DNA of 20,177 nt from Baffinella frigidus. Lineage: Eukaryota > Cryptophyceae > Cryptomonadales > Baffinellaceae. Within the stretch, counting starts at the first letter, position 1. Each line of letters opens with the position of its first letter. The translations under genes and the position numbers were made by a program. Shown here in pieces: positions 394 through 19,308 of the stretch. Under the pieces are notes generated by a model. The model was given only the letters and a program-made list of their open reading frames with translations. It searched no databases and was not told the DNA's origin. The DNA lies in the NCBI GenBank assembly GCA_026770585.1, contig MU648175.1, positions 1 through 20,177 of the forward strand, in the 5' to 3' direction.

Positions 394-432
394 TACCCTG
401 TCATTCCGCCAATGACAAATAAAATGCCAACA
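394..432 (-). other. 39-nt element with 7-bp hairpin at the 3' end of the 519-aa gene
   Basis: Read on the minus strand, this is TGTTGGCATTTTATTTGTCA followed by the rest of a TGTCATT-GGCGG-AATGACA hairpin and GGGTA. The gene's TGA stop overlaps the right arm. A second copy with 37 of 39 identical bases lies at 19270-19308 on the plus strand, and both differences fall in the hairpin loop. It may be a transcript 3'-end signal or a duplicated gene end. Confidence 0.6.
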
Positions 433-1960
433 GGTCTCGGCAAGACCCATTGTATACGGCACCATCCAATACAGATACAAGGTATATACCTCCCCCAATC
501 ACAAACCAATACCAATCAATTACATCCGTACTGGCCCCTCCTTCAACGGAAGCGTTTTTTTCAATACAGGTCCCGTTGGTACATGCGGCAATACGGGCTT
601 GTAGTGCATCACTTGTCCTTGATATAGCAACCGTTGGCTTGTGGCAAACACGACTGGGTGTCGTGTGTTTGGTGTTTGCCGTGTGTTTGGTGGCTGCCGT
701 GTGTTTGGTGGCTGCCGTAGACCACGAGAGTAGCACTGGTACACGGACACCCCCGGATTCTTTTTTGAAATGATGGTCCTCGAATGCAAACCCGATTTCC
801 GGGTATATCTGTTTGAGTGCTGGTAGAACGGCAAGATCACAGGCTTCGTCTACTTCTACTTCTGCGAGTGTTACAGGGAACCTTCGCTTGTATGACGGGA
901 AGTGGCGGTATACACACTGGGACACGTTGTTGTAATATCCACTATACGAGTGTTTATACTCGAGTAGACACCCGGCGGGGATGTCAAAATACATCCCAAG
1001 CATGTGAAAATCGTCAACACCCGCCTCGAGGTGGAAACTCTCGATCGTGAATGGGTATGTGCCACTTGTAACGTTCTTGCCCACAGGCACGGGGACAGAA
1101 TATCGCTGTAAAAACAACAGTCGAAACAAAACAAAGAATATATTCATATAGAATTTGATTCCCATTTCTGTAAGAACCAATGAATGGCTTGGTCCGGTGT
1201 TGTAGACAAACTCTGTATCGTCGGCTTGCCATGACTGAATGTTGCTCTCGAACAAGTACCCGCCAAACCAGATGAACAATTGTGTGACGAGGCGCTCAAC
1301 GGTCTCCAACAAAACCATCCGGTCTGGGCGAGAGTCACAATCGTCTATCGCTTGTTGCATCAAGGGCCATTGGGTCTGTACGGCATAAACAAGGTCGCGC
1401 AGCTGTTGGAGGGAAATATGCTGGGGTACTACGATAGCCGACTGGTGTACTGCACCGTCGCTCGTTGGAAGGGTGTCGGGGTTGGAGTTGGTGGTGTCGG
1501 GGTTGGATTTGGTGGTGGTGTTGGATTTGGTGGTGTCGGGGTTGGGGGTGTCGGGGTTGGTGGTGCTGTTTACAGACGTTTCCACGCCATTACTTGCGTA
1601 AAAATGCGGCAAGAAAATCCCACAATGGGTGTAAAGCAGTTCTGTGTCAGATTGGTCTATAATGACAGGAATAGAGCTTAAGACATCTCCTTCGCTCTGG
1701 TATGCTTCTGCAAATACCCTCGTGCATACCATCCCCACTAGGTGCATCTGATGGAATTCACACGTACAACGCTCACATACCTCGTTGGCGTCACTTCCCC
1801 ACAACCAAAACCGTAACAGTGAATTCGTTTCCAGAACTGGGGTCGTTGCTCTTTCGCTACGCGAAATTCGTGTCAGTGCTTCTTGTATACAAGGGAAATC
1901 TAACACAGTGGCAGGGTTAATGGTTTCACAGGGTGTATTGGGGACCATCGTTGCCGCCAT
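401..1960 (-). CDS. 519-aa protein of unknown function
   Basis: I do not recognise a family. The protein starts MAATMVPNTPCETINPATVL and has a Cys cluster near residues 62-67 (CERCTC). A low-complexity linker of Asn, Pro, Asp, Thr and Ser lies at about residues 130-165. One clear hydrophobic segment lies around residues 270-290 (IKFYMNIFFVLFRLLFL), so it may be a one-pass membrane protein. An AATKHT-type hexapeptide is repeated three times near residue 410, and a hydrophobic stretch lies close to the C-terminus (WFVIGGGIYLVSV). It is divergent from the ankyrin gene, with about 145 bases between the two start codons. A weak TATA-like TTTAGATAAG lies about 45 bases upstream of the ATG. The tandem Asn/Asp/Thr codons make the opposite strand G-rich and open, but the plus-strand frames there look like shadows. 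The stop is embedded in the duplicated hairpin element. Confidence 0.8.
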   Translation of the reverse strand: MAATMVPNTPCETINPATVLDFPCIQEALTRISRSERATTPVLETNSLLRFWLWGSDANEVCERCTCEFHQMHLVGMVCTRVFAEAYQSEGDVLSSIPVIIDQSDTELLYTHCGIFLPHFYASNGVETSVNSTTNPDTPNPDTTKSNTTTKSNPDTTNSNPDTLPTSDGAVHQSAIVVPQHISLQQLRDLVYAVQTQWPLMQQAIDDCDSRPDRMVLLETVERLVTQLFIWFGGYLFESNIQSWQADDTEFVYNTGPSHSLVLTEMGIKFYMNIFFVLFRLLFLQRYSVPVPVGKNVTSGTYPFTIESFHLEAGVDDFHMLGMYFDIPAGCLLEYKHSYSGYYNNVSQCVYRHFPSYKRRFPVTLAEVEVDEACDLAVLPALKQIYPEIGFAFEDHHFKKESGGVRVPVLLSWSTAATKHTAATKHTANTKHTTPSRVCHKPTVAISRTSDALQARIAACTNGTCIEKNASVEGGASTDVIDWYWFVIGGGIYLVSVLDGAVYNGSCRDLLAFYLSLAE

Positions 1961-2073: not shown

Positions 2074-2105
2074 CAATACTGATCATAGATACAGTGTACA
2101 ACAGC

Positions 2106-3176
2106 ATGTCCGGCAGGAAAAAAACCAACCTCCCAGCACACGAAACCCTAGTGTATGAGTTTTGGCGGAAACTTGTAAATACACCAAGGGATTGTCGATC
2201 AATCACAGACGCATGGGACAACATTCAGGAGTTTGAATGGAAGGCCAGCAATCAACGTGACGCCCCGTGCGAAATATTTGATATAAATGCTCCATTGACT
2301 CTACAGGGTATGTGGTTTGGATACACTCCGTTGTGTATTTGTCTTCTAATGTTTCATCATGATACTGCATGGTTCTTCTTGGAAATATGTAAGGCGGATG
2401 TGAATGCGAAAAGCAACGGACAAACTCTCGGTTCATCTGCACAGGGGAGAGCACCTCTACATTTCGCTGCAAGCAACGCTAGTGCTTCTGAAACGATGAT
2501 CCGTGTAATGTGCAGATTACTGCAACACGGCGCGGACACTTCCGCAATTGACACGAATGGCATGACAGCACTTCACTACGTTTGTTCTGGTAGAATGGAT
2601 CGCAATTCATTCAGGGCTCTAAATGCTCTACGCGATGTACTCACCGCCACTGTCGATAAGTCGTCACTCGTGTCGATGCTTGACTTCAATGGGGAATCGG
2701 CGCTTAGTTATGCATGTGCTGTATTCCAACCACGGCCTTATGATATAGATATTTTGAATATACTGATTGAAAACGGAGCTAATGTCAACAGCAAAAAAGG
2801 CATACTTGTGCGTGCTATAGACGGAATGCAAGACCAACACCGCAGAACTATGTTTTTCGGTAATACTAGGGTTCCAAGGTGGTATAAGGCTATCAAGATA
2901 TTGCTGCTGGCCGGTGCAGATCCGTTCGCGATATATGAGGAGGGGTCCGCTATGGGCAAGGCTTCACAACTCGCCAAGGGTAAACACCCTGCAGCTGATA
3001 ACATCAAAGCTATATTTGTGGGCATACAGGAGGCTACAGACGCATTAAAAGAACAGGATCTCCACCCTGTCATTTCACATAGCAAAATGAAACACATCAT
3101 TGAAACAGTCGAGTCCGTACATGACTCTGATAAACGCCGTTGCAATCAATTTGGTCGATCCTTATCAGATGATTGA
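2106..3176 (+). CDS. Ankyrin-repeat protein, 356 aa
   Basis: Ankyrin repeats are protein-binding helix pairs. In large DNA viruses such proteins often act as adaptors that bind host factors. Visible repeat cores are TPLCICLLMFHHDTAWFFLE with KADVNAK (about residues 73-100), APLHFAASN with LLQHGADTSAIDTNG (115-152), TALHYVCSG (154-162), SALSYACAV with ILIENGANVNSKKG (198-232), and AIKILLLAGADPFA (262-275). The C-terminal 70 residues are charged and helical, with no F-box visible. I chose ATG 2106 (MSGRKKTNLPAHETL), which follows the TATA box at the usual distance; an in-frame GTG at 2094 is less likely. It converges with the membrane protein ending at 3247, leaving about 70 bases between stops. 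The partner protein cannot be told from sequence. Confidence 0.9.
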   Translation: MSGRKKTNLPAHETLVYEFWRKLVNTPRDCRSITDAWDNIQEFEWKASNQRDAPCEIFDINAPLTLQGMWFGYTPLCICLLMFHHDTAWFFLEICKADVNAKSNGQTLGSSAQGRAPLHFAASNASASETMIRVMCRLLQHGADTSAIDTNGMTALHYVCSGRMDRNSFRALNALRDVLTATVDKSSLVSMLDFNGESALSYACAVFQPRPYDIDILNILIENGANVNSKKGILVRAIDGMQDQHRRTMFFGNTRVPRWYKAIKILLLAGADPFAIYEEGSAMGKASQLAKGKHPAADNIKAIFVGIQEATDALKEQDLHPVISHSKMKHIIETVESVHDSDKRRCNQFGRSLSDD

Positions 3177-3246: not shown

Positions 3247-4140
3247 CTACGATCTGGATTTCTTATAATGTTTCTTAGGGTGTCCCATTTCGTCGTCCGT
3301 TCCTTCATACTGGGGACTATATGTGATACTTGGAGGAGCTTCGACAAGCGCATTAAATGCGACTCCGCCCTGTTCTGTTTGAATGTCCAACTTTCTACTG
3401 ACTGGTGCCTTCATCTCGTATTCCGCATCAGGAGTGGTTGTCTCGTACTGCACACCAGGTCGGTTCGACCTGGTATTGGAGCTCCGCGTGTCGTGGTCGT
3501 CGGTGTTCGCTGTAAGGGAGTCAGTGTCGTCTTCGTTAAGGAACTCTGTATGGTATCGATATGGGTCGTGCGACTTGTTCGCCAGGAAGCGTCGTATCGT
3601 ATACTGGTTGACCATTAGGTCTACCACGAGACGGATCATGATAAGGTCAAACTGTGCAAACACAAGTGCGATCGACGCAACCGACATCGTGCCACAGTAC
3701 AGCGACCACATTTGTGTAATAAAAACAATCGTAAACTTGCTGTATGGGATCGTGCGAGTCTTGTGGTCCATCACCGTGTTTTGGATCCAGGGACCGATAG
3801 CATCGGATGCAAAATCATTGATTGCAGTGGATATAACCACGAACCCGACGACTGTCAAGTATCGAGACATGGTTTGGATTTTCATCCCCATGTATGTAAG
3901 TGTTTCAGATGGACCGATGCGCATGTATTCGCTGCCAAAGATACCAAGCCATGTAAATCCTATTAGACATACCATAAACCACACGGAAATACAGGCGATA
4001 GTCACTCGCTTATCGTCGAACGCGTTGTCAACACACGCAGCAAATGAGTTCAGTTTAGGGACAGGTGTCCGGTGTCCACGACCTTGACGGGATTCTGGCT
4101 CCCCATTTGAGATGCGTGCACTGGCATCTTCATTCATCAT
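3247..4140 (-). CDS. Multi-span membrane protein, 297 aa
   Basis: Hydrophobic segments occur near residues 45-70 (ISVWFMVCLIGFTWLGIFGS), 90-112 (YLTVVGFVVISTAINDF) and 137-175 (a long stretch fitting two spans, ending LIMIRLVVDLM). A conspicuous motif is DAIGPWIQNTVMDHKTRTIP between spans. The C-terminal third is hydrophilic, rich in Asp, Thr and Ser, and ends in a basic tail (HPKKHYKKSRS). The first ATG in frame is at 4140 (MMNEDAS); upstream codons reach only a TTG. A TATA-like GAGTATAAG lies about 65-75 bases upstream on the minus strand. It is followed in the same direction by no close gene and converges with the ankyrin gene. I know of no function; a virion or host-membrane protein is the natural guess. 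Confidence 0.85.
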   Translation of the reverse strand: MMNEDASARISNGEPESRQGRGHRTPVPKLNSFAACVDNAFDDKRVTIACISVWFMVCLIGFTWLGIFGSEYMRIGPSETLTYMGMKIQTMSRYLTVVGFVVISTAINDFASDAIGPWIQNTVMDHKTRTIPYSKFTIVFITQMWSLYCGTMSVASIALVFAQFDLIMIRLVVDLMVNQYTIRRFLANKSHDPYRYHTEFLNEDDTDSLTANTDDHDTRSSNTRSNRPGVQYETTTPDAEYEMKAPVSRKLDIQTEQGGVAFNALVEAPPSITYSPQYEGTDDEMGHPKKHYKKSRS

Positions 4141-4265
4141 GACTAGCAACAACCATGGGAGGTCCCTGTGCCCGTGTGTTAATAAACGCGTGTCGGTGTT
4201 TTTGCGACTTATACTCTATTCCAGACAAATGATAATTCATGTTTATTGGGACCTCTGTAAATTTT

Positions 4266-6015: not shown

Positions 6016-6086
6016 GAGTTGCTCGGACAACTTGGGAGTTGCTCGGACAACTTGGGAGTTGCTCGGACAACTTGGGAGTTGCTCGG
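6016..6086. repeat. 20-bp tandem repeat, 3.5 copies
   Basis: The unit GAGTTGCTCGGACAACTTGG starts at 6016, 6036, 6056 and 6076 (partial). Each full unit contains the short inverted repeat GTTG/CAAC. The array begins exactly after the TGA of the preceding gene. Confidence 0.95.
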
Positions 6087-6176: not shown

Positions 6177-6845
6177 CTAGAGCCCCAACTTAAGCGCCGA
6201 CAGTTCTTCGTTGACGCGGCGAAGCTCTTCGGTCTGGGCCTCATAGCAAAGGGCCCAGTCGTTGGCCTGTGCCGCAAAGCGAAGTGCCCAGTCGTCGACC
6301 TCAGACTGAAGCTGCGTGACGACGACGTTCTTCTTCGTGCGGCTCCGGAGAGCAGACAAGCGGTTGCGCTCCTTTATTCCCGCAACCTCTTCCGGGTCCG
6401 TGATGACCTTGGGGATGCGGATGCGGGCGGGCGCCGGTTTCTTGGCCATGCCGGGCACGTTGGACGCGTTCCTGGGGCCGCCCTTCTTGACGTAGGCGCG
6501 TTTCTTGCGCGTCGGGACCGTCGACACCATCTCGTCTTCCGCGTTGTCCGCGATGGAAGGCGCACTGGGAACGAAGTCTGCGTCCATGTCATCAGAACCG
6601 ACACCGTCGCCATCCTGGTCCTCCGCGTCTGACCCGGCCCCGTCCAGTGGCCAACCCCCCGCCTGTCCCACAGCAGTCGAACTCCTTGTCTCAGGAGGAC
6701 TGCCCCAGAAGGGTGCTGGTGCAGGAACACACATGAGGTTGTCCATATCCCGCGGAGTGCCCGGTGCAGACTCTGAGCCCATACTGCCACAGTCTCCCCA
6801 CTGGGCGTTGAAAGTACGAGGGTTGTCGTTTCCGAGCTCCGTCAT
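6177..6845 (-). CDS. bZIP transcription factor, 222 aa
   Basis: bZIP proteins bind DNA as dimers through a basic region followed by a leucine zipper. Residues about 157-170 (KERNRLSALRSRTK) fit the bZIP basic signature: the invariant Asn (161) and Arg (169) are present with the SA pair and RSR between, and the first zipper Leu lies 18 residues after the Asn, as in GCN4. The zipper is irregular: an 11-residue unit with DWAL is repeated (DDWALRFAAQA, NDWALCYEAQT), then Leu recurs every seven residues at the end (EEL, EEL, LGL). The N-terminal half is acidic and Pro-rich, like an activation domain (about residues 70-105 very Asp-rich). A basic Lys/Arg stretch (RKKRAYVKKGG) precedes the bZIP. The gene is GC-rich compared with the membrane genes to its left. 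No clear TATA box was found upstream of the ATG at 6845. It is the most upstream-acting candidate of the nuclear gene group at 6-11 kb. Confidence 0.85.
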   Translation of the reverse strand: MTELGNDNPRTFNAQWGDCGSMGSESAPGTPRDMDNLMCVPAPAPFWGSPPETRSSTAVGQAGGWPLDGAGSDAEDQDGDGVGSDDMDADFVPSAPSIADNAEDEMVSTVPTRKKRAYVKKGGPRNASNVPGMAKKPAPARIRIPKVITDPEEVAGIKERNRLSALRSRTKKNVVVTQLQSEVDDWALRFAAQANDWALCYEAQTEELRRVNEELSALKLGL

Positions 6846-7051
6846 ATTACCTGTGTGGGGGCGATGTATGTTAAACTCTGAGAGGTGCTAAAAGGTGATG
6901 TACCATACAGTCGGAGAGGTCCTAAACACAATTTACTAGATAGGTGTTCCTTGGATGGGGTTGCTGGAGTGGTGTGGGGGGCGTGTCACCGGTGTGTGGG
7001 AGTGGACGAATTTACGGAAGGGATGCGTCAATCGTGAAATAGAGATTCCAT
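6846..7051. other. Spacer upstream of the bZIP gene
   Basis: No supported gene. A 32-codon plus-strand frame from the ATG at 6955 is rich in Trp and Gly and has no support. This segment should hold the bZIP promoter, but I see no convincing TATA element. Confidence 0.5.
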
Positions 7052-7226
7052 AAACACAAAATGGTTAGTCAACACCCCTGCAAGAAACACAAAATGGTTA
7101 GTCAACACCACTGCCAGAAACACAAAATGGTTAGTCAACACCCCTGCCAGAAACACAAAATGGTTAGTCAACACCCCTGCAAGAAACACAAAATGGTTAG
7201 TCAACACCCCTGCAAGAAATACAAAA
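7052..7226. repeat. 33-bp tandem repeat, about five copies, open on both strands
   Basis: Units centred on CACAAAATGGTTAGTCAACA recur every 33 bases. On the plus strand each unit carries an ATG, and a frame of 57 codons (7061-7234) repeats the 11-residue KHKMVSQHPCK. On the minus strand the array is also open and would encode the hydrophobic repeat FVFLAGVLTNH, but only from a TTG. Because 33 is divisible by three, an open frame needs no selection; whether it is translated is unknown. Confidence 0.9.
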
Positions 7227-7339
7227 GGGGTTAACCAGCCAACGCACCAAGACAAACGCGCGTGTACCTTGGGATGGGTGGGATACGTTCTATCACATGA
7301 GACTCATACATGCATTTGAATGAACCGAGTAGGAAATTA

Positions 7340-7471
7340 GAGTGACATACTAATATAATTAGTTGAAATTTTGAGTGACGTACTAATATAATTAGTTGAA
7401 ACTTTGAGTGACGTACTAAGATATTGAGTGTGATATTTGAGTGACGCACTAAGATATTTAGTTGAATTTGA
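7340..7471. repeat. Second 33-bp tandem repeat, four diverged copies
   Basis: GAGTGACGTACTAATATAAT-type units start at 7340, 7373, 7406 and 7439. The last two are diverged. The sequence is unrelated to the preceding array although the period is the same. AT-rich compared with the surroundings. Confidence 0.85.
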
Positions 7472-7563
7472 GACACATGCCTCAAATTTGCTAGAAGATT
7501 CAAGCCACCCACTCAAGATTTGGTAGAAGAAACTTGAGTTGTGCGAATTTTATACGACCTACG

Positions 7564-7583
7564 GTGTGTGTGTGTGTGTGTGT
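7564..7583. repeat. GT dinucleotide microsatellite
   Basis: About ten GT units. The following sequence to 7760 shows no supported gene; an 81-codon plus-strand frame at 7539-7784 runs through the microsatellite and looks accidental. Confidence 0.9.
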
Positions 7584-7761
7584 TGGGGCGACCCTCAAGG
7601 TGGTTGGGATTTTGTTAAATTATACCTCCCACGCGGGTCTGGTCACAAGACGTCCCACGGTACCAGCCGCGACCCAGTCGTAACCGTGTGCTCCGGGTTG
7701 TTACGTGGGAGGGATAGAATGTGTCAAGTGGGCAGACTCCATATATTGCAATTGGTTGTGC

Positions 7762-7863
7762 AACACGTGTTACCATTTGTTTGACCAGGTCTTCAAGATT
7801 ACGCTAACACGTGTTACCATTTATTTGACCAGGTCTTCAAGATTACGCTAACACGTGTTACCA
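7762..7863. repeat. 44-bp repeat carrying the AACACGTGTTACCA motif, three motif copies
   Basis: AACACGTGTTACCA occurs at 7762, 7806 and 7850, exactly 44 bases apart, with GACCAGGTCTTCAAGATTAC between. AACACGTGTT is a perfect palindrome containing CACGTG (G-box/E-box core), a site class bound by many bZIP and bHLH proteins. The last copy ends 67 bases before the ATG of the small frame at 7930. Related motifs recur at 9123 and 9208. Confidence 0.85.
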
Positions 7864-7929
7864 CCAAACTTATGTTAGGACCCTACATCCAGATAGACCA
7901 CTCCAACCACACCCCCCTTCCATACTGAC

Positions 7930-8085
7930 ATGACTCGATCCGGCGGCATTATCTCAAACCAACACCGGCCGGAAACGTCATTCTTTGTCCGGGAAGAATA
8001 CAACCAACCAACGGGATCATGTGACTCCGCATCTTCCAGCGGTCGCTACGACAACAAGGAATGCCGTGGACGCAAACGTTCTTAG
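7930..8085 (+). CDS. Candidate small protein, 51 aa
   Basis: An ATG frame reads MTRSGGIISNQHRPETSFF, a polar middle with Asn, Ser and Tyr, and a basic end (ECRGRKRS). The composition is balanced and not repeat-derived, unlike the shadows nearby. It begins 67 bases after the G-box repeat array in the same orientation and ends about 140 bases before the 3' end of the chromodomain gene, with which it converges. The basic tail could be a nuclear signal. No homology is recognised and no TATA box is evident, so it may be a chance frame. Confidence 0.35.
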   Translation: MTRSGGIISNQHRPETSFFVREEYNQPTGSCDSASSSGRYDNKECRGRKRS

Positions 8086-8224
8086 AACACCCTAGAGAAG
8101 TTTTGGATGTACATGTTTAAGTAAAACTGCTACATTTCGGCCCGGGAATGGACTTTCCACGAGATACATGCATGGATTTTCCATGAGACACAGGAATTGA
8201 TTTTCCAGTTTATTGTTGAACACC

Positions 8225-9034
8225 TCAGTTGTCATCCGACTCGGTGTCGTTGACATACTCCGCCAGGGCAAGAAGCGCCCGCATTGCAAGCTGTTCTTTC
8301 TTGGAACCCTTGGACTTGGGAGTTCCAGACTTGGACTGTGCACATGCCTTAGGGGGGTGCACAGCAGATTCCTCACTCTCAGACTCGAGATACTCAAAAG
8401 CGGCCCCATAAGCACTGGGGTGGTTGTTAACACCCTTGGGCTTCTGGGCCACAGCCTTGGGCTTCTGGACCACAGACTTGGAAAGAGCAACTACCGAAGG
8501 TAGTTCCACAAGCTCGTCGTCGCTATCACTATCGTCGAAGATAAGCTTCCTAGCGCTGCGACGGGTGCTCTTGTGGTGCCGAGTGCAGACGCGCTTGCGT
8601 TTCTTCTGGCCCGTCGTCTCTGTGTAGTCCTCACCCGAGTCGTCTGAATCTGGTTCGTCGGCATCACTGCCCACCTCATCTTCAGATGAAACCGCTTCAT
8701 CCTCAGAGGTGACCACTTCATCCCCAACAGACCCAGAACCCGAATCGGCACTATCTTCACTGACCGAATCAGACTCCACGGGGTCGTCTTCGTCACTCAA
8801 ACTCGCTTCGTAGAAACTAGAGTTCTTTTTGAAGAAGGAAGGAAGCTTGTCAATCCACATGTTGTCATCTGAACCGTAACCCCTCCACTTTACAAGATAC
8901 TCACGTCCCCACTCACCCTGTCGCGACTTGATAACTTTCTCGATTTCGTACAGAAGATGCTTCTTAACAATTGGGGTGGGTGCTGCACGGACAGCCTTAC
9001 GGCCACGAACGAACCCATCCGATCGGATTAGCAT
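8225..9034 (-). CDS. Chromodomain protein, 269 aa
   Basis: Chromodomains bind methylated lysine in histone tails. Residues about 28-78 match the fold: YEIEKVIKSRQGEWGREYLV, then KWRGYGSDDNMWIDKLPSFF. The three aromatic-cage positions of HP1-type domains are all present (Tyr29, Trp50, Tyr53), and the DDN-W motif follows. So methyl-lysine binding looks intact. Residues about 80-140 are a long Asp/Glu/Ser stretch like histone-binding acidic regions. It is followed by basic clusters (QKKRKRVCTRHHKSTRRSAR) likely to serve nuclear import or DNA binding. A second acidic patch (FDDSDSDDELVEL) and Lys/Pro repeats (VQKPKAVAQKPKG) come next. There is no chromoshadow domain or catalytic module, so it is a reader, not an enzyme. 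An ACCAATAAAATACC element about 75-85 bases upstream and the palindrome at 9096-9110 (TACCTA-TCA-TAGGTA) may be promoter parts. It lies between the bZIP and SET-like genes on the same strand. Confidence 0.9.
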   Translation of the reverse strand: MLIRSDGFVRGRKAVRAAPTPIVKKHLLYEIEKVIKSRQGEWGREYLVKWRGYGSDDNMWIDKLPSFFKKNSSFYEASLSDEDDPVESDSVSEDSADSGSGSVGDEVVTSEDEAVSSEDEVGSDADEPDSDDSGEDYTETTGQKKRKRVCTRHHKSTRRSARKLIFDDSDSDDELVELPSVVALSKSVVQKPKAVAQKPKGVNNHPSAYGAAFEYLESESEESAVHPPKACAQSKSGTPKSKGSKKEQLAMRALLALAEYVNDTESDDN

Positions 9035-9114
9035 TTGATGCGATTCGTGCCAGGTGAAATGGTGTGTGATACAACCCCTGTGTGGAATTATCTATTACCT
9101 ATCATAGGTATTTT

Positions 9115-9244
9115 ATTGGTCGACACGTGTTACCACAATTTCACCCTGGACATATCCGTAGGCCAGCCGTAGGGTCCTAGGTGTATTTCGCAGTTATTCT
9201 ACTGGTCAACACGTGATACCACAATTTCACACTGGACATATCCG
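9115..9244. repeat. Pair of 44-bp direct repeats with CACGTG core
   Basis: Copies at 9115-9158 and 9201-9244 are near-identical and share ACACGTGTTACCACAATTTC or its close variant (the second has GTGATACC). They lie in the upstream region of the chromodomain gene and, in the opposite direction, upstream of the small frame at 9300. The core matches the motif of the array at 7762-7863. Confidence 0.85.
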
Positions 9245-9299
9245 CAAGGTCTTAAAAACAGAGCTAAGCACGAGTCGCTCGACACGACACCCCCTCAGC

Positions 9300-9383
9300 A
9301 TGGCAACCCCGCAAGAAACCGCAGCACCAGAGAACTTCGAGGAAAATAAGGACAGGGGGCTCCCTCGGGGAATTTATTGGTGA
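9300..9383 (+). CDS. Candidate small peptide, 27 aa
   Basis: The frame starts MATPQETAAPENFEENKDRG in a good start context (CAGCATGG) and ends at a TGA. It lies 56 bases after the second G-box repeat, much like the small frame at 7930. A weak TATA-like CTTAAAAACA stands about 50 bases upstream. It is very short, so it may be a leader peptide, a gene remnant or chance. The rest of the spacer to 9505 holds an AC-rich stretch and no other supported gene. Confidence 0.2.
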   Translation: MATPQETAAPENFEENKDRGLPRGIYW

Positions 9384-9505
9384 CAGTACACACACACACC
9401 ACCCCCAAACGACCAGATCCACCCTACTAAATCACGGGTAGCTATCTTAAGCCCGAAGGACTGTGCTAAGCCCCGATCGGCTATCATAGGTGTGCTGTAC
9501 GTCTC

Positions 9506-10993
9506 CTACATGGTGAAGGTGGCGTCGCGCTCCTCGTCATCCCCGTCGTCGTAGAACTCGACAAGCAGCTCGGTGCCGCCGAGGATGACCTGGTCGAGCG
9601 ACATGAGCCAGAGCTTCTCGTCCCCGTCCTCGTGGATGTAGCAGTTGGGCTTGCGCTCCTGGCCGCAGTCCTTGACACGCGCCGCGTAGTTCTGGACGTT
9701 GGGCTTCGCGTTGGTGAGTGCCGGCACGACGTGCCGCCCGTGGATACCGACCGCCATCGCGTGCTTACGCCGCGGGTCGTTGGCACGCATGCGGTTGAAG
9801 TCGCGCGCTTCTACGAGGTCCCCGTAGTAGCGCGAAATCGTCGAGCTTGCGGGGATCGACGCACCGTCACGCACGAAAACACCCGACGCGAAGACAGGTG
9901 ACCGCAGCTTGCTTGAGATGTTGTCCAGTGGCTTGCACGGGCACGGCACGGTGTAGTAGCTTGTGTACCCCGGGCACATGACCTGCGTCCCCATGACCCT
10001 CCCGGGCTGCGTGCAGTTGCCGCAGGAAATGTTGTTGTTGTCGTTCACCATCTTGGTCGCGACGTCGCGCATGTCGGTGTGCTTGACCAGTGGCGAAAGG
10101 ATCTTGGCGCATTGAAGGAGGACCACCTGGAGATCATCCGTCGAAAGCAAGTTGTTTGCGACGAGCTTGGAGATGGACTCGGTCATACAGCTGGCGAGGA
10201 CACTGCTGGGAGCAACGTCGGCGACTATGTCCATGGAGTCCACGGCGAAGTGCTGGAGCGACTCGAGGGTGGCGCTCCGAAGTTCCTTGCGAGCCGCCTC
10301 CAAGTACTGCGAGGAACCCGCCGTAGCGTAGTTGGAGGATTTCGCCACCTTAGAGCGCTTGTTAGTCTCGATGGGTCCCGGGCGCTTGTTGGTCTCGACG
10401 GGCCCCGGGCGCGGCATGTACGTGGGGATGGGCGTGGGGATGGGCGTGGGGATGGGCGTGGGGATGGGCGTGGGGATGGGCGTGGGGATGTGCGTGGGGA
10501 TGGGCGTGGGGGTGGGGAGGTTGCTGGTGGTTGGTGCAGGCGGGGCGGCCACGAACCCGCGGTTGAAGGAAGGGAGCGAAGTGTTGCATGTCCGAAGCTC
10601 GTTGTTGAAGGGCGGAAGCTCGTTGAAGGGCGGAATCTCGGGGTTGAAGGAGGGTGAAACCCCGTCGTCGAGGAGCGGAAGCTCGTTGTCGAAGGGTGAA
10701 AGATCATTGGCGATCCTGTCGAAGGACATGTCGCATGCGAGCGGGTTGGTGTCCAGCGGCGGGCCGCTGGAGTCGGTGTGCAGCTCACCAGAGCCAGGCG
10801 GGTTGTTGTAGAGCACACCGGAGTGATCGGGCGAGATCGACTGCATACTGGACGGAATCGGCGATGCAAAGGGGTTGAACATCGCCGGGCTGTCCCTGAG
10901 AGTTTTGTCGGGGGACTGCAGCGAGTCGAACACCGTGCGGTCGAAGTAGTCAGCCTCGGGAGAAGGCGGGGGGTCGTTCAGCATGCTGGACAT
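9506..10993 (-). CDS. SET-domain-like protein (candidate lysine methyltransferase), 495 aa
   Basis: SET enzymes transfer methyl groups from S-adenosylmethionine to lysine, often on histones. Residues about 366-483 show the order of SET landmarks: ASGVFVRDGASIPASS (first strand pair), SRYYGDLV (the Tyr-x-Gly step), ALTNAKPN and RKPNCYI (in place of the usual NHSC-PN block, with an insert), and LWLMSLDQVILGGTELLVEF (the final GEEL-x-x-x-Y block). The last catalytic Tyr aligns with Phe, next to a Tyr, so activity is uncertain. Just before lies a Cys cluster (Cys324, 327, 340, 351, 353) that could hold zinc like a pre-SET module. The N-terminal half is disordered: Asn/Pro/Phe-rich, then a (PTPI)n tract (about residues 160-192) and basic TNKRPGPIETNKRSKVAKSS, a likely nuclear signal. 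The C-terminus is acidic. GC-rich gene. A second in-frame ATG at residue 4 is possible. Confidence 0.65.
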   Translation of the reverse strand: MSSMLNDPPPSPEADYFDRTVFDSLQSPDKTLRDSPAMFNPFASPIPSSMQSISPDHSGVLYNNPPGSGELHTDSSGPPLDTNPLACDMSFDRIANDLSPFDNELPLLDDGVSPSFNPEIPPFNELPPFNNELRTCNTSLPSFNRGFVAAPPAPTTSNLPTPTPIPTHIPTPIPTPIPTPIPTPIPTPIPTYMPRPGPVETNKRPGPIETNKRSKVAKSSNYATAGSSQYLEAARKELRSATLESLQHFAVDSMDIVADVAPSSVLASCMTESISKLVANNLLSTDDLQVVLLQCAKILSPLVKHTDMRDVATKMVNDNNNISCGNCTQPGRVMGTQVMCPGYTSYYTVPCPCKPLDNISSKLRSPVFASGVFVRDGASIPASSTISRYYGDLVEARDFNRMRANDPRRKHAMAVGIHGRHVVPALTNAKPNVQNYAARVKDCGQERKPNCYIHEDGDEKLWLMSLDQVILGGTELLVEFYDDGDDEERDATFTM

Positions 10994-11906: not shown

Positions 11907-11928
11907 TTAATTAGCCAGTCAATCAAAA

Positions 11929-12030
11929 TTGCCAAGGCAACTTTACTAATTTTAACGGCAAAGTTGCCAAGGCAACTTTACCGATTTTAACGGCAAAGTT
12001 GCCAGGGCAACTTTATCGGTTTTAGAGGCC
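11929..12030. repeat. 35-bp tandem repeat with AAAGTTGCC palindrome, three copies
   Basis: Units start at 11929, 11964 and 11999. Each boundary holds AAAGTTGCC-AA-GGCAACTTT or a close variant, a near-perfect hairpin, and between them ATTTTAACGGC. It lies about 270 bases upstream of the ATG at 12297. Positions 12031-12296 hold no supported gene; they include CACGTG at 12268 and a pyrimidine-then-CAG stretch (TGTCTGTCCACAG ending at 12283) that could be a splice acceptor in the leader. Confidence 0.85.
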
Positions 12031-12296
12031 GCACGAACAAAGGGACCAAGAGCAGCGAGCTGGTTGATAAGCCCAACGGTGCGCCCCCGAACCGCTCCCC
12101 ACCACCCAAGTGAACACGCGGCACGCGCCCAGTCATCCCAGTTGCGTTTGTGTGCACAGATTGCAGCTGCCACGCTCTCGGGCCCACCGCTTGGGTATCT
12201 GCGTCCCGTGCTGTCACACTCGAGTCTTTGCGACAACCCGTCATTCGGGTCCCCGCCCCCGCTGAACCACGTGTCTGTCCACAGGATTGTCCGGTC

Positions 12297-14194
12297 ATGG
12301 CGAGCATGGCACCAGACGGGGCGTGGCGCGACGACGAGATCGACGACGGGTCCGTCGACCGCGAAATCCTGTTCGAGACTTTCAGATACGGTACAACGAT
12401 TCCCGACACCTCAATTTTCGACACGGGCGTGGACTTCAAGACACATCGGTGCCATGTGGTGAGCTTCAACACCTTCAAGCGGGTCTTTGACGGCAATTGG
12501 GTGGATATGGCGCTGCTGGAGTTCAACGACTGCCGTTTCTCTGCAATGCCCACCAACAACCTCATCTACGCCCACCACATCTCCAGCTTGGCCCACGCCG
12601 ACCGCTACAAGATCGCTGCGAGGACATCTGCACAGTTCTTCGGGTATTGCGACCTCGAACCCGTCCTCACACCCAAAGCCTTCCTTACACCCCTCTTCAC
12701 AGAGTTCTTCGCCAACTTCGCGGTGCCGCGCAGCAAGATCTACCAAACGCGCCTGGACGGGAGTGTGCAGATCGTCACCATCGCGGATTGCGTCACGAAC
12801 ACCATCACTGACATGGCGGAACTCGTCAAGCGCTGGAACCCTGTCCCGTTCAAGGAGAACGAGTGCAGCTTGTACATCGGGGTCAACGTCCGCGAGTGCT
12901 CGGACCAGGAGGATTCCAGCACGGATGCGGACATCGACGAGGATGAGAACGACCTCGTCGAGCTCACCGGCGATGAGGCCGCGGAGGACGCCGCGCATCT
13001 CTTGGAGATCAAGAGGCAACAAGTGCATGACGCGCCGCGTGTGAAGAAACCGGTCGTGAAGCCTGCGAACCCAGACCCTACGTCGTTCCCACCGGAGCCT
13101 ATCGCCAAGGGGCCGATGCCAGAGCCTATCGCCAAGGGGCCGATGCCAGACGAGGGGGCCACCGCTGCCCCTGCGGTGGCCGCTGCGGTGGCCGCACCCC
13201 CTTCTTCGCCAACCTCAGAGCCCTCTTCGCCGCCTCCCAAGCGTTCCGCGCGTGCCGTACCGCCCTCGAAGGCCGCCTCTGTGCCGGTGCCCTCGAAGGC
13301 CGCCTCTGTGCCGGTGCCCTCGAAGGCCGCCCCTGTGCCGGCGGACTCGCTTCCTCGCAAGGCTGGTCAGACCAACAACGCCCAGAACGCCGGGCGGTCC
13401 TCGACGAACAACACCAAAGATGCTTCCATCGGGCCCAAGCAGTCTTCTAGCGACAAAGACGCCGCCGCTTCTTCTTCCGGCAACAGGGCTTCGAGGTCCG
13501 GCACCGCGTCCTCCGAGCCGCCCAAGTCCGCCACCGCGTCCTCCAAGCCGCCCAAGTCCGCCGCGGCATCCCCGGCCCCGTCCCCGGCCCCGTCCAAGTC
13601 GCACAAGAAGAAGTCCACCACCGCGGACGCCGGCGGGGCCAACGCGCCCCTCGCTTATACCACCCCTATGCGCACGCGTTTCCACCCCGCGGTAAAACCC
13701 TCCCTTGAACTTCAACCCGAAGCTCTGAACCCAACCCCCTAGAACTGAAACCCTGGAACTGGAATCCTAGTCCCACCCAAGCCCTGGACCTTCAACCTGA
13801 AACCCTAAACCCTGAAACTGGACCCACAACCCCTAAAATGAAATCCTAAACCCTAACCCCTCGAACTGAAACCCTAAACCCTACACCCTAGAACCAGAAC
13901 CCTGGAACTGAAACCATAAACCCAACCCCCAAACCCTAAACCCTAAACCCTAAATCCTAAATCCTTAAAATGAGACCCTAAACCCTAAACCCTCGAACTG
14001 AAACCCTAAACCCACCCCCCAAACCCTAAACCTTAGAACTGAAATCCTAACCCCTTTCTCAGGCGGCTGGTCCCAAGGGCACTACCAAGGAAGTGACACA
14101 GGACAAGACGCCAGCAGTCCCGGCCGACACCCTCAAGCGCACGCGCGACTCCTCTCTGGTACCACCCCTCCTCTCTGGTACCACCCCTCCATAA
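12297..14194 (+). CDS. GC-rich protein with low-complexity tail; probably spliced (12297-13691 joined to 14063-14194)
   Basis: I do not recognise the family. Residues 1-205 (from MASMAPDGAW) look globular, with runs such as THRCHVVSFNTFKRVFDGNW and VDMALLEFNDCRF. A strongly acidic patch (SSTDADIDEDENDLVEL) follows. The rest is Ala/Pro/Ser/Lys low complexity with repeats EPIAKGPMP (two) and PSKAASVPV (three), ending in a basic SKSHKKK. Unspliced, the frame stops at 13742, with the last 16 residues translated from telomere-like repeats. A better model removes 13692-14062 (GTAAAA to TTTCTCAG, phase 0). The joined exon encodes AAGPKGTTKEVTQDKTPAVP and about 23 more residues to TAA 14192-14194, for 508 aa. 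Its PADTLKRTRD resembles PADSLPRKAG upstream. An upstream in-frame ATG at 12150 is possible but gives a Cys-rich, unlikely start. No TATA box seen. Confidence 0.7.
13692..14062 (+). other. Probable spliceosomal intron made of telomere-like repeats
   Basis: It begins GTAAAACCC and ends CCCCTTTCTCAG, with coding-like sequence in the same phase on both sides. Its body is degenerate AACCCTAAACCCTGAAACTG units, with a short perfect CCCTAAA run near 13935-13955, matching the plant-type telomere repeat (TTTAGGG on the other strand). There are no other coding frames inside. An alternative is that telomere-like DNA was inserted into the gene and truncates it. Confidence 0.5.
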
Positions 14195-15160: not shown

Positions 15161-15230
15161 ATGACACCTCGTCCATGTCCTCTTTTATTTAAGCAATGGG
15201 GTGTCATCTTCAAAGTACAGAGCTTCTCTC

Positions 15231-15238
15231 ATATATAC
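15231..15238 (+). promoter_or_regulatory. TATA box of the coiled-coil gene
   Basis: ATATATAC lies 37 bases before the ATG at 15268, matching the spacing of the ankyrin gene. A second A/T element, TATTTAAG at 15186-15193, lies further up and would favour a longer leader. Confidence 0.65.
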
Positions 15239-15267
15239 CACCCTACAAACTAATCCCGGTTTCCAAA

Positions 15268-16971
15268 ATGTCGAAAGCACGCACCTCCACCGTTCCAGCC
15301 GTTCCAGCCGTTCCAGTCGGTCCGGCGCCTTTTAAAATTTCCATGGATTATACGCACTTGTATGGTCAAGTTGCTCAGTCTGTTACCCAGGGCGCTCTCA
15401 AGTCTAGTAACGCAGGCCTGTGGATGATAGAACAGTCCCGCATCGACCAAATTGTCAAAAATAAGACATGTCGCCAGCTACTCAGGGACACGGACCATAT
15501 TGCCAATACATGGGTCGCAGAGAAGGGCCTTGCTGAAAACACATGGGTCGTCGGCAGGATTGTTTCCGCTGAATGGAAGGCTGGTGTCGATATACAGGTA
15601 AAGGTTGACTTTCCAGGATATCGAATCGCTAAAAATGACAGGCATATAATTTGTTCTCTGGGGGTGCACAACAAAGGCAGTGAAGTTAAGCTTGATACCT
15701 CTAGTAATACGTTCAAATGCCTGTCTAATCGAAATGCCGGCGGCTCCAATAAACCGGCGGATCTAATCATGTTCACCACGGACCAGCTGGGGTACAAGGA
15801 TGATGCTGGATTGGAACAAGCGCGAGTGTCTCTTTCAACCTTTTCGGCCGATATCACACAGCGCAGCAACCACCTTTCGCAACGCGAGAAGGAACTGAAA
15901 ACCGCCCAAGAAACTCTTAAGGTTGATATAGACAAGTTTGAGAAGGAACGGGGTACCGACTCGACTAAAACCAACTTGGTGACCACCGAACTGGAGAAAG
16001 AGCTGCACGATGCACTTGAGAATACTAGGAAGCAGGCGATGAAACTGGAAGAACTGCGCCATGAATTCAAACAGAAATCTGCCAATACTGCGAAAGATAC
16101 CGAAGCCCGCACTGAACGTATCCAAGTGAAGCTCACCCAAGCTAAAGAAGGGTTGAAAAAGGCCAAACAGGACCAGGCAGTCCTCTCTGACAAGTTTGCA
16201 AAGTCACAGAAAGAGAAACTTGAGTCAAACGACGCCCGTCTCAAAGAGCTAGAGAAGGAGCTTACAGAGGCACACAACCAGACAGATCAGTATAAACAGC
16301 AAATGGCCCAGCTTGAAACCCACCGTAAGAACGTTGATAACCCCGATAACTTGGCTAGCATCAAAGACATGGAAGACAAGATGAAACAGGCGGATGTCCA
16401 ATTGCAATCCAAGGTTAAATATAACGACCTGGTCGCCAACGGGAAGGCACACAAAGAAAAGACAGCGGAGCTTCTACTTCAACACCAGCACGAACTCAAA
16501 CAGGCCACTCAACGAAGCGCTGAGCTACTAGGGGCACTTGAAAGGAGTGAAAATCTCTACAAACAACTGCAAAAGGTGCATAATACCACCCCTGCTACCA
16601 AGGCTGGGGCTGAATACGGATACCGTTCCATCAGGTCTCGATTTGAAGACGGAATCCGTCCCACCGAAAAAAGGTACCGAGGCGAGTACGAAACCCCGCG
16701 GTCGATGGACAGTTATGCGGGTGGTCGTATGGACAGTTATGCGGGTGGTCGTATGGACAGTTATGCGGGTGGTCGTATGGACAGTTATGCGGGTGGTCGT
16801 ATGGACAGCGATGCGGGTGATCGTATGGACAGCGATGCGGGTGGTCGTATGGACAGCGATGCGGGTGGTCGTATGGACAGCGATGCGGGTGGTCGTATGG
16901 ATACCGAGAAGACTTTCCGTGACAATATCGTGGACAAGGTCATGTTGTCACTGGGTGGTGGTTCAATGTGA
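15268..16971 (+). CDS. Long coiled-coil protein with C-terminal octapeptide repeats, 567 aa
   Basis: The start at 15268 (MSKARTSTVPAVPAVPVGPA, context CAAAATGTCG) suits the TATA box; an ATG 24 codons earlier lies upstream of the expected transcript. Residues about 20-180 form a possible globular head (KISMDYTHLYGQVAQSV, then VVGRIVSAEWKAGVDIQVKV). Residues about 185-440 are almost continuous heptads of Lys, Glu, Gln and Leu, a long coiled coil without visible Pro breaks except near residue 357. The tail has eight copies of an octapeptide, RMDSYAGG four times then RMDSDAGG-type four times, ending MLSLGGGSM. It is probably a structural or scaffold protein, inferred from architecture only. AATAAA overlaps the position right after the stop. 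Gene composition resembles the membrane genes more than the GC-rich group. No family recognised. Confidence 0.85.
   Translation: MSKARTSTVPAVPAVPVGPAPFKISMDYTHLYGQVAQSVTQGALKSSNAGLWMIEQSRIDQIVKNKTCRQLLRDTDHIANTWVAEKGLAENTWVVGRIVSAEWKAGVDIQVKVDFPGYRIAKNDRHIICSLGVHNKGSEVKLDTSSNTFKCLSNRNAGGSNKPADLIMFTTDQLGYKDDAGLEQARVSLSTFSADITQRSNHLSQREKELKTAQETLKVDIDKFEKERGTDSTKTNLVTTELEKELHDALENTRKQAMKLEELRHEFKQKSANTAKDTEARTERIQVKLTQAKEGLKKAKQDQAVLSDKFAKSQKEKLESNDARLKELEKELTEAHNQTDQYKQQMAQLETHRKNVDNPDNLASIKDMEDKMKQADVQLQSKVKYNDLVANGKAHKEKTAELLLQHQHELKQATQRSAELLGALERSENLYKQLQKVHNTTPATKAGAEYGYRSIRSRFEDGIRPTEKRYRGEYETPRSMDSYAGGRMDSYAGGRMDSYAGGRMDSYAGGRMDSDAGDRMDSDAGGRMDSDAGGRMDSDAGGRMDTEKTFRDNIVDKVMLSLGGGSM
16705..16896 (+). 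repeat. 24-bp coding tandem repeat, eight copies
   Basis: ATGGACAGTTATGCGGGTGG-type units start every 24 bases from 16705. Copies 1-4 carry AGTTAT (Ser-Tyr) and copies 5-8 carry AGCGAT (Ser-Asp), so two blocks were amplified separately. Copy 5 ends GATCGT (Asp-Arg) instead of GGTCGT. Confidence 0.95.
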
Positions 16972-18327: not shown

Positions 18328-18400
18328 GGGTGTGTAGCTCAACCGGTAGAGCGTTTCACTTATTATGAAACGGTTGCCAGTTCAAATCTGGTCATACCCA
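18328..18400 (+). tRNA. tRNA-Ile, anticodon UAU
   Basis: A full cloverleaf can be drawn. The acceptor GGGTGTG pairs with CATACCC (one G-T pair). The D stem is GCTC/GAGC, the anticodon stem TTTCA/TGAAA, the variable loop has five bases, and the T stem is GCCAG/CTGGT with the TTCAAAT loop. The seven-base anticodon loop is CTTATTA, giving UAU, which reads the isoleucine codon AUA. Position 37 is T, where a purine is normal. The discriminator is A, and no CCA is encoded, as in eukaryotic nuclear and many viral tRNAs. No intron. Confidence 0.9.
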
Positions 18401-19171: not shown

Positions 19172-19269
19172 CTCGAGACACCTCATCCGATCTGAAATAC
19201 ACGCATCGCATACCACGACTATACGAAAATATACCAACCAAATCCGTGAAACCTTGTACGTGAAACACG

Positions 19270-19308
19270 TGTTGGCATTTTATTTGTCATTGGTGAAATG
19301 ACAGGGTA
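19270..19308 (+). other. Second copy of the 39-nt hairpin element
   Basis: It has TGTCATT-GGTGA-AATGACA with the same flanks as 394-432. In the same frame it would end a protein LAFYLSLVK, matching LAFYLSLAE at the end of the 519-aa protein, but no gene precedes it here on this strand. AACACGTGTT (19264-19273) overlaps its left edge. It is followed by two copies of CCCGTTAAAAT. Confidence 0.7.

What the first reader, a model, noticed from the sequence alone, without database searches (positions are those of the whole stretch)
6177..10993. bZIP, chromodomain and SET-like genes grouped on one strand in a viral-type region
Three consecutive large minus-strand genes encode a DNA-binding factor, a methyl-lysine reader with all three cage aromatics (Tyr29, Trp50, Tyr53) and a candidate lysine methyltransferase. 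A binder, reader and writer set would let a virus or integrated element set or hold a chromatin state. The domains are seen in the sequence. What each class does is established for the families. The joint system is inference from position, strand and domain type.
Basis: partly seen in the sequence, partly recalled or inferred. Interest (0 to 1): 0.8.

Follow-up and report, generated by a model that had tools for sequence, protein, structure and literature searches.

The report
Chromatin-gene cassette in virus-like elements
In an unnamed eukaryote's genome, a family of large virus-like DNA elements carries neighbouring genes for a DNA-binding bZIP-like protein, a chromatin-mark reader and a SET-like protein, a set that would suit control of gene silencing.

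Summary
Three minus-strand ORFs lie in a row: bZIP-like (6177-6845), chromodomain (8225-9034), SET-like (9506-10993). The window is a whole 20-kb contig of a 382-Mb eukaryote assembly. The chromo/SET-like pair is no accident: it recurs on one strand in one order on the five contigs that top both genome searches. These contigs share a wider gene order and a tRNA-Ile(UAU) (4 of 4 covered). The chromodomain is certain, its methyl-lysine cage kept in 5 of 5. The bZIP is probable. The SET assignment is weak, and the aligned NHSC and catalytic-Tyr positions are replaced in 6 of 6, unlike a host SET gene. I read it as a chromatin-targeting cassette (DNA binder, methyl-lysine reader, probably non-catalytic SET-like partner) of an unclassified family of virus-like endogenous elements. 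Copies are old and separately descended (pS 0.43-0.79); most matched stretches hold no stop.

The parts
401..1960 (-). 519-aa conserved element protein of unknown fold; 22 matching stretches on 14 contigs of the genome
   Evidence: no Pfam, PHROGs or NCBIfam match
2094..3176 (+). ankyrin-repeat protein
   Evidence: PF00023 1.1e-15
3247..4152 (-). conserved protein, probably multi-pass membrane (read by eye); 73% identical over 225 aa on contig C1162
4266..5669 (-). conserved protein, probably multi-pass membrane (read by eye); 67% over 205 aa on C1162, 54% over 257 aa on C993
5695..6015 (+). small conserved protein that borders the cassette on C1317, C1162, C879 (and by eye C993)
6016..6086 (.). 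20-bp tandem repeat, 3.5 identical copies; three full GTTGCT-CG-GACAAC near-palindromes
6177..6845 (-). bZIP-like protein: basic region N161-R169, first leucine at the expected R-x9-L spacing, later heptads irregular with an 11-residue repeat (by eye)
   Evidence: pairwise match to the C879 copy E=4e-7
7762..7863 (.). 44-bp tandem repeat, 2.3 copies, with two TAACACGTGTTA palindromes (CACGTG core, a possible bZIP-type site; recalled, untested), between the chromo gene's end and the bZIP gene's start
8225..9034 (-). chromodomain protein: N-terminal chromodomain, acidic middle, conserved C-terminal end
9506..10993 (-). SET-like protein: low-complexity Pro-rich N-terminal part, Cys cluster, divergent SET-like C-terminal domain
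11924..12024 (.). 35-bp tandem repeat, 2.9 copies, with GTTGCC-NN-GGCAAC palindromes (look like RFX X-boxes; recalled), upstream of the SET-like gene
12150..13742 (+). ORF at the place where C1334, C879 and C1221 carry a shared protein; similarity to it not significant (E=0.16 and 0.75)
13803..14032 (.). degenerate CCCTAAA (telomere-like) tract
15196..16971 (+). coiled-coil protein, homologues on C1162, C1221, C1334
17013..17978 (+). conserved protein, probably multi-pass membrane (read by eye); homologues on C1221, C1330, C993, C1162 (there in two frames), C147
18328..18400 (+). tRNA-Ile, anticodon TAT; also on C1162, C1334, C1221
19474..20025 (+). conserved 183-aa protein, 60% (156 aa) and 52% (185 aa) identical copies on C1221 and C1162; matches a phage family of unknown function (phrog_20074, E=9.5e-5)

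Best explanation
The window is a fragment of one member of a family of large (shared genes span about 39 kb on C1162) virus-like endogenous elements in a eukaryote with introns. Its bZIP, chromodomain and SET-like genes are a chromatin-regulation cassette. Shown: the three ORFs are open, lie together on one strand, and the chromo/SET-like pair is kept in order and strand in five divergent elements. Inferred: the bZIP-like protein binds element or host promoter sites; the HP1-like chromodomain docks on methylated histone H3; the SET-like protein, which has lost the usual catalytic positions, works as a non-catalytic partner (peptide or nucleosome binding, or a decoy of host SET enzymes) rather than as a methyltransferase. 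Together they would set whether the integrated element, or host genes, are silent or active, as in latency control.
For: Chromo/SET-like pair: the top five places of both searches are the same five contigs, one strand, same order. Collinear neighbours on C1162, C1221, C1334, C879, C993. tRNA-Ile(UAU) on 4 of 4 contigs whose right-hand part was read. Element genes are single long ORFs, while a SET gene elsewhere in this genome lies in several reading frames over 3 kb, as if split by introns (by eye, one gene). Ribonucleotide reductase small chain on C1162 (PF00268, 6.3e-114); serpin on C993 (3.7e-50). Chromodomain above the Pfam cut-off in 5 of 5, Y29, W50, Y53 invariant in 5 of 5, pN 0.15-0.24 against pS 0.52-0.78 over ten pairs. 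SET-like: a profile of five copies hits yeast Set2 at E=0.0038; with six copies that match is E=0.0073 and 10 of 14 chains listed at E<=10 are Set2/SETD2.
Against: No capsid, terminase or B-family polymerase match in the genome, though the polymerase miss in a eukaryote shows that these searches are insensitive here. The SET assignment rests on weak scores: the window's own protein has no Pfam SET match, 1 of 6 copies matches PF00856, below cut-off. Single-sequence folds failed (mean pLDDT 35.5 and 35.7). bZIP is below the Pfam cut-off; one of two C1162 bZIP-like genes is on the other strand; C993 has no chromo match; no bZIP was seen on C1221. For the SET-like domain pN (0.28-0.43) is not far below pS (0.43-0.64), so constraint there looks modest. 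The window itself holds no proven host gene, so integration of this copy is not shown.
Confidence: 0.5

Rival explanations
1. The SET-like gene is an active but divergent methyltransferase: a viral writer paired with its own reader, which methylates host or element histones.
For: The first half of the domain and the ELL-D region align with Set2; a Cys-rich stretch precedes the domain, as in pre-SET/AWS regions (recalled); five copies keep the Cys pattern, C993 part of it.
Against: In 6 of 6 copies the aligned NHSC and DY positions read other residues, while a host SET gene of the same genome keeps NHCC and TYDY (one of three host SET places looked at).
Confidence: 0.2
2. These are giant transposons or host multigene clusters, not viruses; the chromodomain came from a chromodomain retrotransposon or from host HP1.
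For: No capsid or packaging gene was identified; the only IMG/VR relative of the chromodomain is a Ty3/gypsy-like element; ankyrin genes are plentiful.
Against: The chromo gene is a free-standing ORF with its own conserved N- and C-terminus in 5 of 5, not an integrase tail; ribonucleotide reductase, serpin and tRNA are more usual for large DNA viruses (recalled).
Confidence: 0.25
3. The contigs come from free viruses or episomes in the sequenced culture, not from the host chromosome.
For: Many carriers are small contigs; the window is 20 kb with no proven host gene; most matched stretches hold no stop.
Against: CCCTAAA-type tracts, present in huge number in this genome (15,790 + 14,832 overlapping exact 28-mers against 1 + 1 for the reversed control), also lie in elements; a related gene set sits on 465-kb contig C147 with a 1234-aa Ephrin_rec_like protein nearby, though that gene's origin is not proved.
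Confidence: 0.2
4. The third protein is not SET-related at all; the Set2 match is chance.
For: E=0.0038 on one query, weaker (0.0073) with a sixth copy; one Pfam match of six, below cut-off.
Against: Matches fall on the proper first-half and second-half SET positions in separate searches.
Confidence: 0.25

Closest known systems
Chromodomains of HP1/CBX, Polycomb and CDYL
   Same: Best solved matches are CDYL and CDYL2, then HP1/CBX and Polycomb chromodomains; three cage aromatics kept (positions by recall of HP1).
   Different: The Pfam match covers profile positions 1-34 of 53 in the window's protein; the last part is an element-specific LPSFFKK-like stretch; no chromoshadow domain was reported by Pfam.
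SET domain of Set2/SETD2 (H3K36 methyltransferases)
   Same: Best solved matches.
   Different: Aligned NHSC and catalytic Tyr positions are not kept; Pfam score below cut-off.
vSET of chlorella virus PBCV-1 (H3K27 methyltransferase; only paper listings seen, details recalled)
   Same: A SET-type gene in a virus-like genome.
   Different: vSET is an active free-standing enzyme (recalled); here the domain is divergent, has a long low-complexity N-terminal part and stands beside a chromodomain gene.
Herpesvirus bZIP regulators (EBV Zta, Marek's disease virus Meq; recalled)
   Same: A bZIP-type protein in a large virus-like genome, a possible latency switch.
   Different: No sequence link tested; no herpesvirus hallmark gene found.
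Chromodomain Ty3/gypsy retrotransposons (PMC12477816, passages read; L027)
   Same: Chromodomain in a mobile element, thought to steer it to chromatin.
   Different: There it is fused to the integrase end; here it is a separate gene.
Endogenous giant viruses and mirusviruses of protists (PMC12210455 and PMC12768974, passages read; PMC10675990, abstract and outline read)
   Same: Many divergent, partly broken copies of large viral elements in a eukaryote genome.
   Different: No mirusvirus or Nucleocytoviricota hallmark was shown here; a ribonucleotide reductase gene is present, which two mirusvirus orders are said to lack.

Membership tests
Chromodomain (PF00385) | Score above the curated cut-off | tested here: met
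   35.1 bits in the window; 34.1, 33.1, 31 and 36 in the other four; cut-off 25.1
Chromodomain (PF00385) | Three-aromatic methyl-lysine cage | tested here: met
   Y29, W50, Y53 invariant in 5 of 5; correspondence to the HP1 cage by recall
Chromodomain (PF00385) | Complete domain with C-terminal helix | tested here: inconclusive
   Match covers 1-34 of 53 profile positions in the window
bZIP (PF00170) | Basic region N-x7-R | tested here: met
   N161-R169; 3 pattern hits against 0.36 in shuffles, pattern framed after seeing the proteins
bZIP (PF00170) | Regular leucine heptads | tested here: not met
   Only the first leucine fits in the window's protein; the plus-strand C1162 copy has three in register (by eye)
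bZIP (PF00170) | Score above the curated cut-off | tested here: not met
   18.9 against 27.6 bits; 1 of 4 copies matches PF00170 at E<=1
SET methyltransferase (PF00856) | Score above the curated cut-off | tested here: not met
   Best is the C879 copy, 16.8 against 22.4 bits; the other five copies no match
SET methyltransferase (PF00856) | NHSC motif | tested here: not met
   0 of 6 copies; a host SET frame has NHCC
SET methyltransferase (PF00856) | Catalytic Tyr in the C-terminal DY motif | tested here: not met
   F at the aligned place in 6 of 6, given the alignment to Set2
SET methyltransferase (PF00856) | SET fold | tested here: inconclusive
   Two single-sequence models with mean pLDDT 35.5 and 35.7
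Nucleocytoviricota | Double-jelly-roll major capsid protein | tested here: inconclusive
   PF04451: no match, but no control rang either
Mirusviricota / Herpesvirales | HK97-type capsid, portal, terminase | tested here: inconclusive
   PF03237 no match, in a genome where family searches proved insensitive; capsid not searched for; a conserved 475-aa protein on C1162 looks portal-like by eye only, no family match
Chromodomain retrotransposon | Chromodomain fused to the integrase end of a Ty3/gypsy polyprotein | tested here: not met
   Free-standing ORF in 5 of 5; contrast with L027

The most novel reading that the evidence does not exclude
An undescribed lineage of large DNA viruses that persists in a eukaryote's nucleus carries its own chromatin-state module, a sequence-specific bZIP, an HP1-like reader and a SET-derived pseudo-enzyme, to place its integrated genome in, or protect it from, host heterochromatin; the DNA-binding part changes between sister elements (bZIP copies far apart in sequence, a weak homeobox-like gene at the same place on C993).
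Probability: 0.2. Interest if true: 0.8.

Novelty: new variant of a known kind. Interest (0 to 1): 0.55.

Why it matters
Viral latency in protists is little understood. Condensed, hypermethylated giant-virus insertions are reported in Acanthamoeba (PMC12210455, passages). A virus-like element family that carries its own methyl-lysine reader next to a SET-like gene, kept together over long divergence, would make it testable whether the element, not only the host, controls its chromatin state. My paper searches listed no title or abstract start that describes a chromo plus SET-like gene pair in an endogenous virus; the one paper holding all three terms concerns Ectocarpus transposons (passages). 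The searches cover one library of open-licence papers, and most listed papers were not opened.

Tried and rejected
Relatives elsewhere: six IMG/VR scans gave only L027, a Ty3/gypsy-like retroelement (by eye). tblastn of two conserved element proteins against the phage collection: none. PHROGs matches to the ankyrin, coiled-coil and low-complexity parts were set aside; the 19474 protein's match to a family of unknown function (E=9.5e-5) stands but names nothing. Viral hallmarks: PF04451, PF00136 and PF03237 in G000 gave none; since any eukaryote has B-family polymerases, the method misses long models, so I draw no absence from it. Host identity: the rRNA search failed in the tool and was not repeated; Cymbomonas (PMC10675990, abstract and outline) was considered and dropped because its expected genome is near 1 Gb. 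That the 12150 ORF is homologous to the shared gene at its place was tested and is not significant. The exact X-box form was found in the window alone among the window and L001-L022. That CCCTAAA tracts are integration sites was not pursued: they lie inside the elements.
Full report
What was checked. The window is the whole of contig C1317 (20,177 bp) of an assembly of 382,457,362 bases in 1364 contigs. In transcription order they run SET-like, chromodomain, bZIP-like, with 471 bp and about 1.4 kb between them.

Chromodomain. PF00385, E=1.3e-8. The four sister copies score 31 to 36 bits against a cut-off of 25.1. All five have Y29, W50 and Y53, which by recall of HP1 are the methyl-lysine cage. 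The best solved relatives are CDYL/CDYL2, then HP1/CBX and Polycomb. Behind the domain comes an acidic, variable middle and a conserved C-terminal end in 5 of 5. Non-synonymous differences are far fewer than synonymous (pN 0.15-0.24, pS 0.52-0.78 over ten pairs), so the domain has been under constraint while silent sites changed heavily.

bZIP. PF00170 at E=0.0017, below the curated cut-off. The basic region reads N-x7-R with a leucine at R-x9-L, as in bZIP proteins; the later zipper is irregular, with an 11-residue repeat (by eye). The pattern search found three hits in all ORFs scanned, against 0.36 in shuffles; all three are at this cassette; I wrote the pattern after seeing them. The C879 copy matches the window's at E=4e-7, the plus-strand C1162 copy at E=1e-4. 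C1162 also has a weaker minus-strand copy. A C993 ORF at this place is bZIP-like by eye only, with no bZIP match in Pfam. The genome search with the window's bZIP found no place but itself, so this gene seems to change faster than its neighbours. Of four bZIP-like copies scanned, one matches PF00170 and one PF07716 at E<=1.

SET-like protein. The window's protein alone has no meaningful match (chance-level matches only). A profile of five copies finds yeast Set2 at E=0.0038 over both halves of the SET domain. With a sixth copy that match weakens to E=0.0073, and 10 of 14 chains listed at E<=10 are Set2 or SETD2; these are near-copies of two proteins and so not independent. The C879 copy alone matches the second half of PF00856 at E=0.0095, below cut-off; the other five do not. 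In 6 of 6 copies the NHSC motif and the tyrosine of the DY motif are replaced (placed by the Set2 alignment). A SET gene elsewhere in this genome (L023, 59.9 bits; the best of three places found) keeps NHCC and TYDY, so this is not a peculiarity of the organism; the other two places were not inspected. I therefore call it SET-like and think a non-catalytic role more likely. A cysteine cluster before the domain is kept in five copies and partly in the sixth. Two folds without an alignment failed.

The pair is a real unit. Searches of the whole genome with the chromo and SET-like proteins return the same five contigs on top: C1317, C1162, C1334, C879, C1221. In 5 of 5 both genes are on one strand, SET-like upstream. 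Weaker chromo places on C895, C623, C1230 and C1352 have no SET-like match; a SET-like gene on C993 has no chromo match; a last SET-search place on C76 falls on the repeat-rich N-terminal part. The bZIP-like gene is seen at the cassette on C1317, C1162 and C879. C1334 ends too close to tell, and on C1221 the pattern found none.

The element family. Neighbouring genes are shared too: the 401-1960 protein, the 3247 and 4266 proteins and the small 5695 protein on the left; the 15196 coiled coil, 17013 and 19474 proteins on the right; not each contig has each gene. tRNA-Ile(UAU) lies between the 17013-like and 19474-like genes on C1317, C1162 and C1221 (on C1221 its strand is turned relative to them) and beyond the coiled-coil ORF on C1334, where neither of those two genes was found: 4 of 4 contigs whose right-hand part was read. 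It is the only tRNA found in the window and 19 loci scanned. At the cassette itself C993 has a weak Homeobox_KN-like ORF (E=0.019, below cut-off). Elsewhere in the elements lie a six-finger C2H2 protein (C1334, next to the tRNA) and a weak Myb-like ORF (C1162, right end). C1162 also has a ribonucleotide reductase small chain (6.3e-114; best solved matches are M2-type small subunits), C993 a serpin (3.7e-50), and C879 a Tcp11-like gene inside the block (5.6e-21).

Age and breakage. Synonymous differences between copies are 0.43 to 0.79 (chromodomain, SET-like domain and the 401 gene), so the copies parted long ago and are not one recent burst, although in another gene one pair is 99% identical over 270 aa (C1162 and C1342) and one 88% (C1162 and C958). 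Matched stretches without a stop: 9 of 10, 20 of 22, 12 of 13, 7 of 7; the SET-like search has 6 of 7, the one with stops being the doubtful C76 place. The C1162 copy of the 17013 gene lies in two frames. The family thus mixes open and broken copies. I mended none.

Host setting. Exact (CCCTAAA)4 occurs 15,790 and 14,832 times (overlapping) on the two strands, the reversed control once each; such repeats are strewn through this genome. Degenerate tracts also lie inside the elements between the coiled-coil gene and the SET side on C1317 and C1162 and, in a CCCTAA form, on C1221, but not on C1334 (3 of 4). A related gene set lies on the 465-kb contig C147 with an Ephrin_rec_like protein nearby. 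This favours integration, but no junction with a proven host gene was read. Long runs of N (for instance 9,197 of 9,999 bases of L008 and all of L017) hide parts of the elements.

How it may work. Shown: the genes, their order, their upkeep. Inferred: the bZIP targets DNA (candidate sites are the CACGTG palindromes at 7762-7863 and the GTTGCC-GGCAAC palindromes at 11924-12024, upstream of the bZIP and SET-like genes); the chromodomain holds the complex on methylated nucleosomes; the SET-like protein adds a second histone or enzyme contact. The product would be a switch between silent and active element chromatin. Nothing here tests binding or expression.

Place among known things. Chromodomain membership is met. 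bZIP is met in its basic region but not by cut-off or heptads. SET methyltransferase membership fails on motif and cut-off. Virus class could not be set. Paper searches for this combination listed nothing that describes it, judged from titles and abstract starts. I rate it a new variant of a known kind: endogenous large virus-like elements, with an unusual chromatin cassette.

Noticed in passing
window 13803-14032; L002 5312-5566; L006 1634-1920: Degenerate CCCTAAA/CCCTAA tract at the same place in three of four elements read there, in a genome strewn with such repeats.
   Followed up: partly
window 394-435 and 19267-19308: Inverted repeat of 42 bp (93%) near the two ends of the window: the end of the 401-1960 gene recurs turned round at the end of another ORF.
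   Followed up: no
window 6016-6086 and 11924-12024: Two arrays of GTTGCY-NN-RRCAAC palindromes flank the cassette; the perfect form looks like the RFX X-box (recalled) and was not found in L001-L022.
   Followed up: partly
window 18328-18400; L003 9896-9967; L011 2342-2418; L014 5748-5818: tRNA-Ile(UAU) kept in the right-hand part of four elements.
   Followed up: yes
L026 7171-8058: Serpin ORF (PF00079, 3.7e-50) in the C993 element.
   Followed up: partly
L004 2052-4580: Tcp11-like ORF of 842 aa between the bZIP-like and chromo genes of the C879 element.
   Followed up: no
L009 7083-8507: 475-aa protein, 71-99% identical on five other contigs and 25-32% on four more, among the most conserved genes seen; portal-like by eye only, no family match.
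   Followed up: partly
L011 and other loci: Many ankyrin ORFs end in a similar A-x-G-H-x-x-R-L-G-like C-terminal stretch (by eye), perhaps a common adaptor tail.
   Followed up: no
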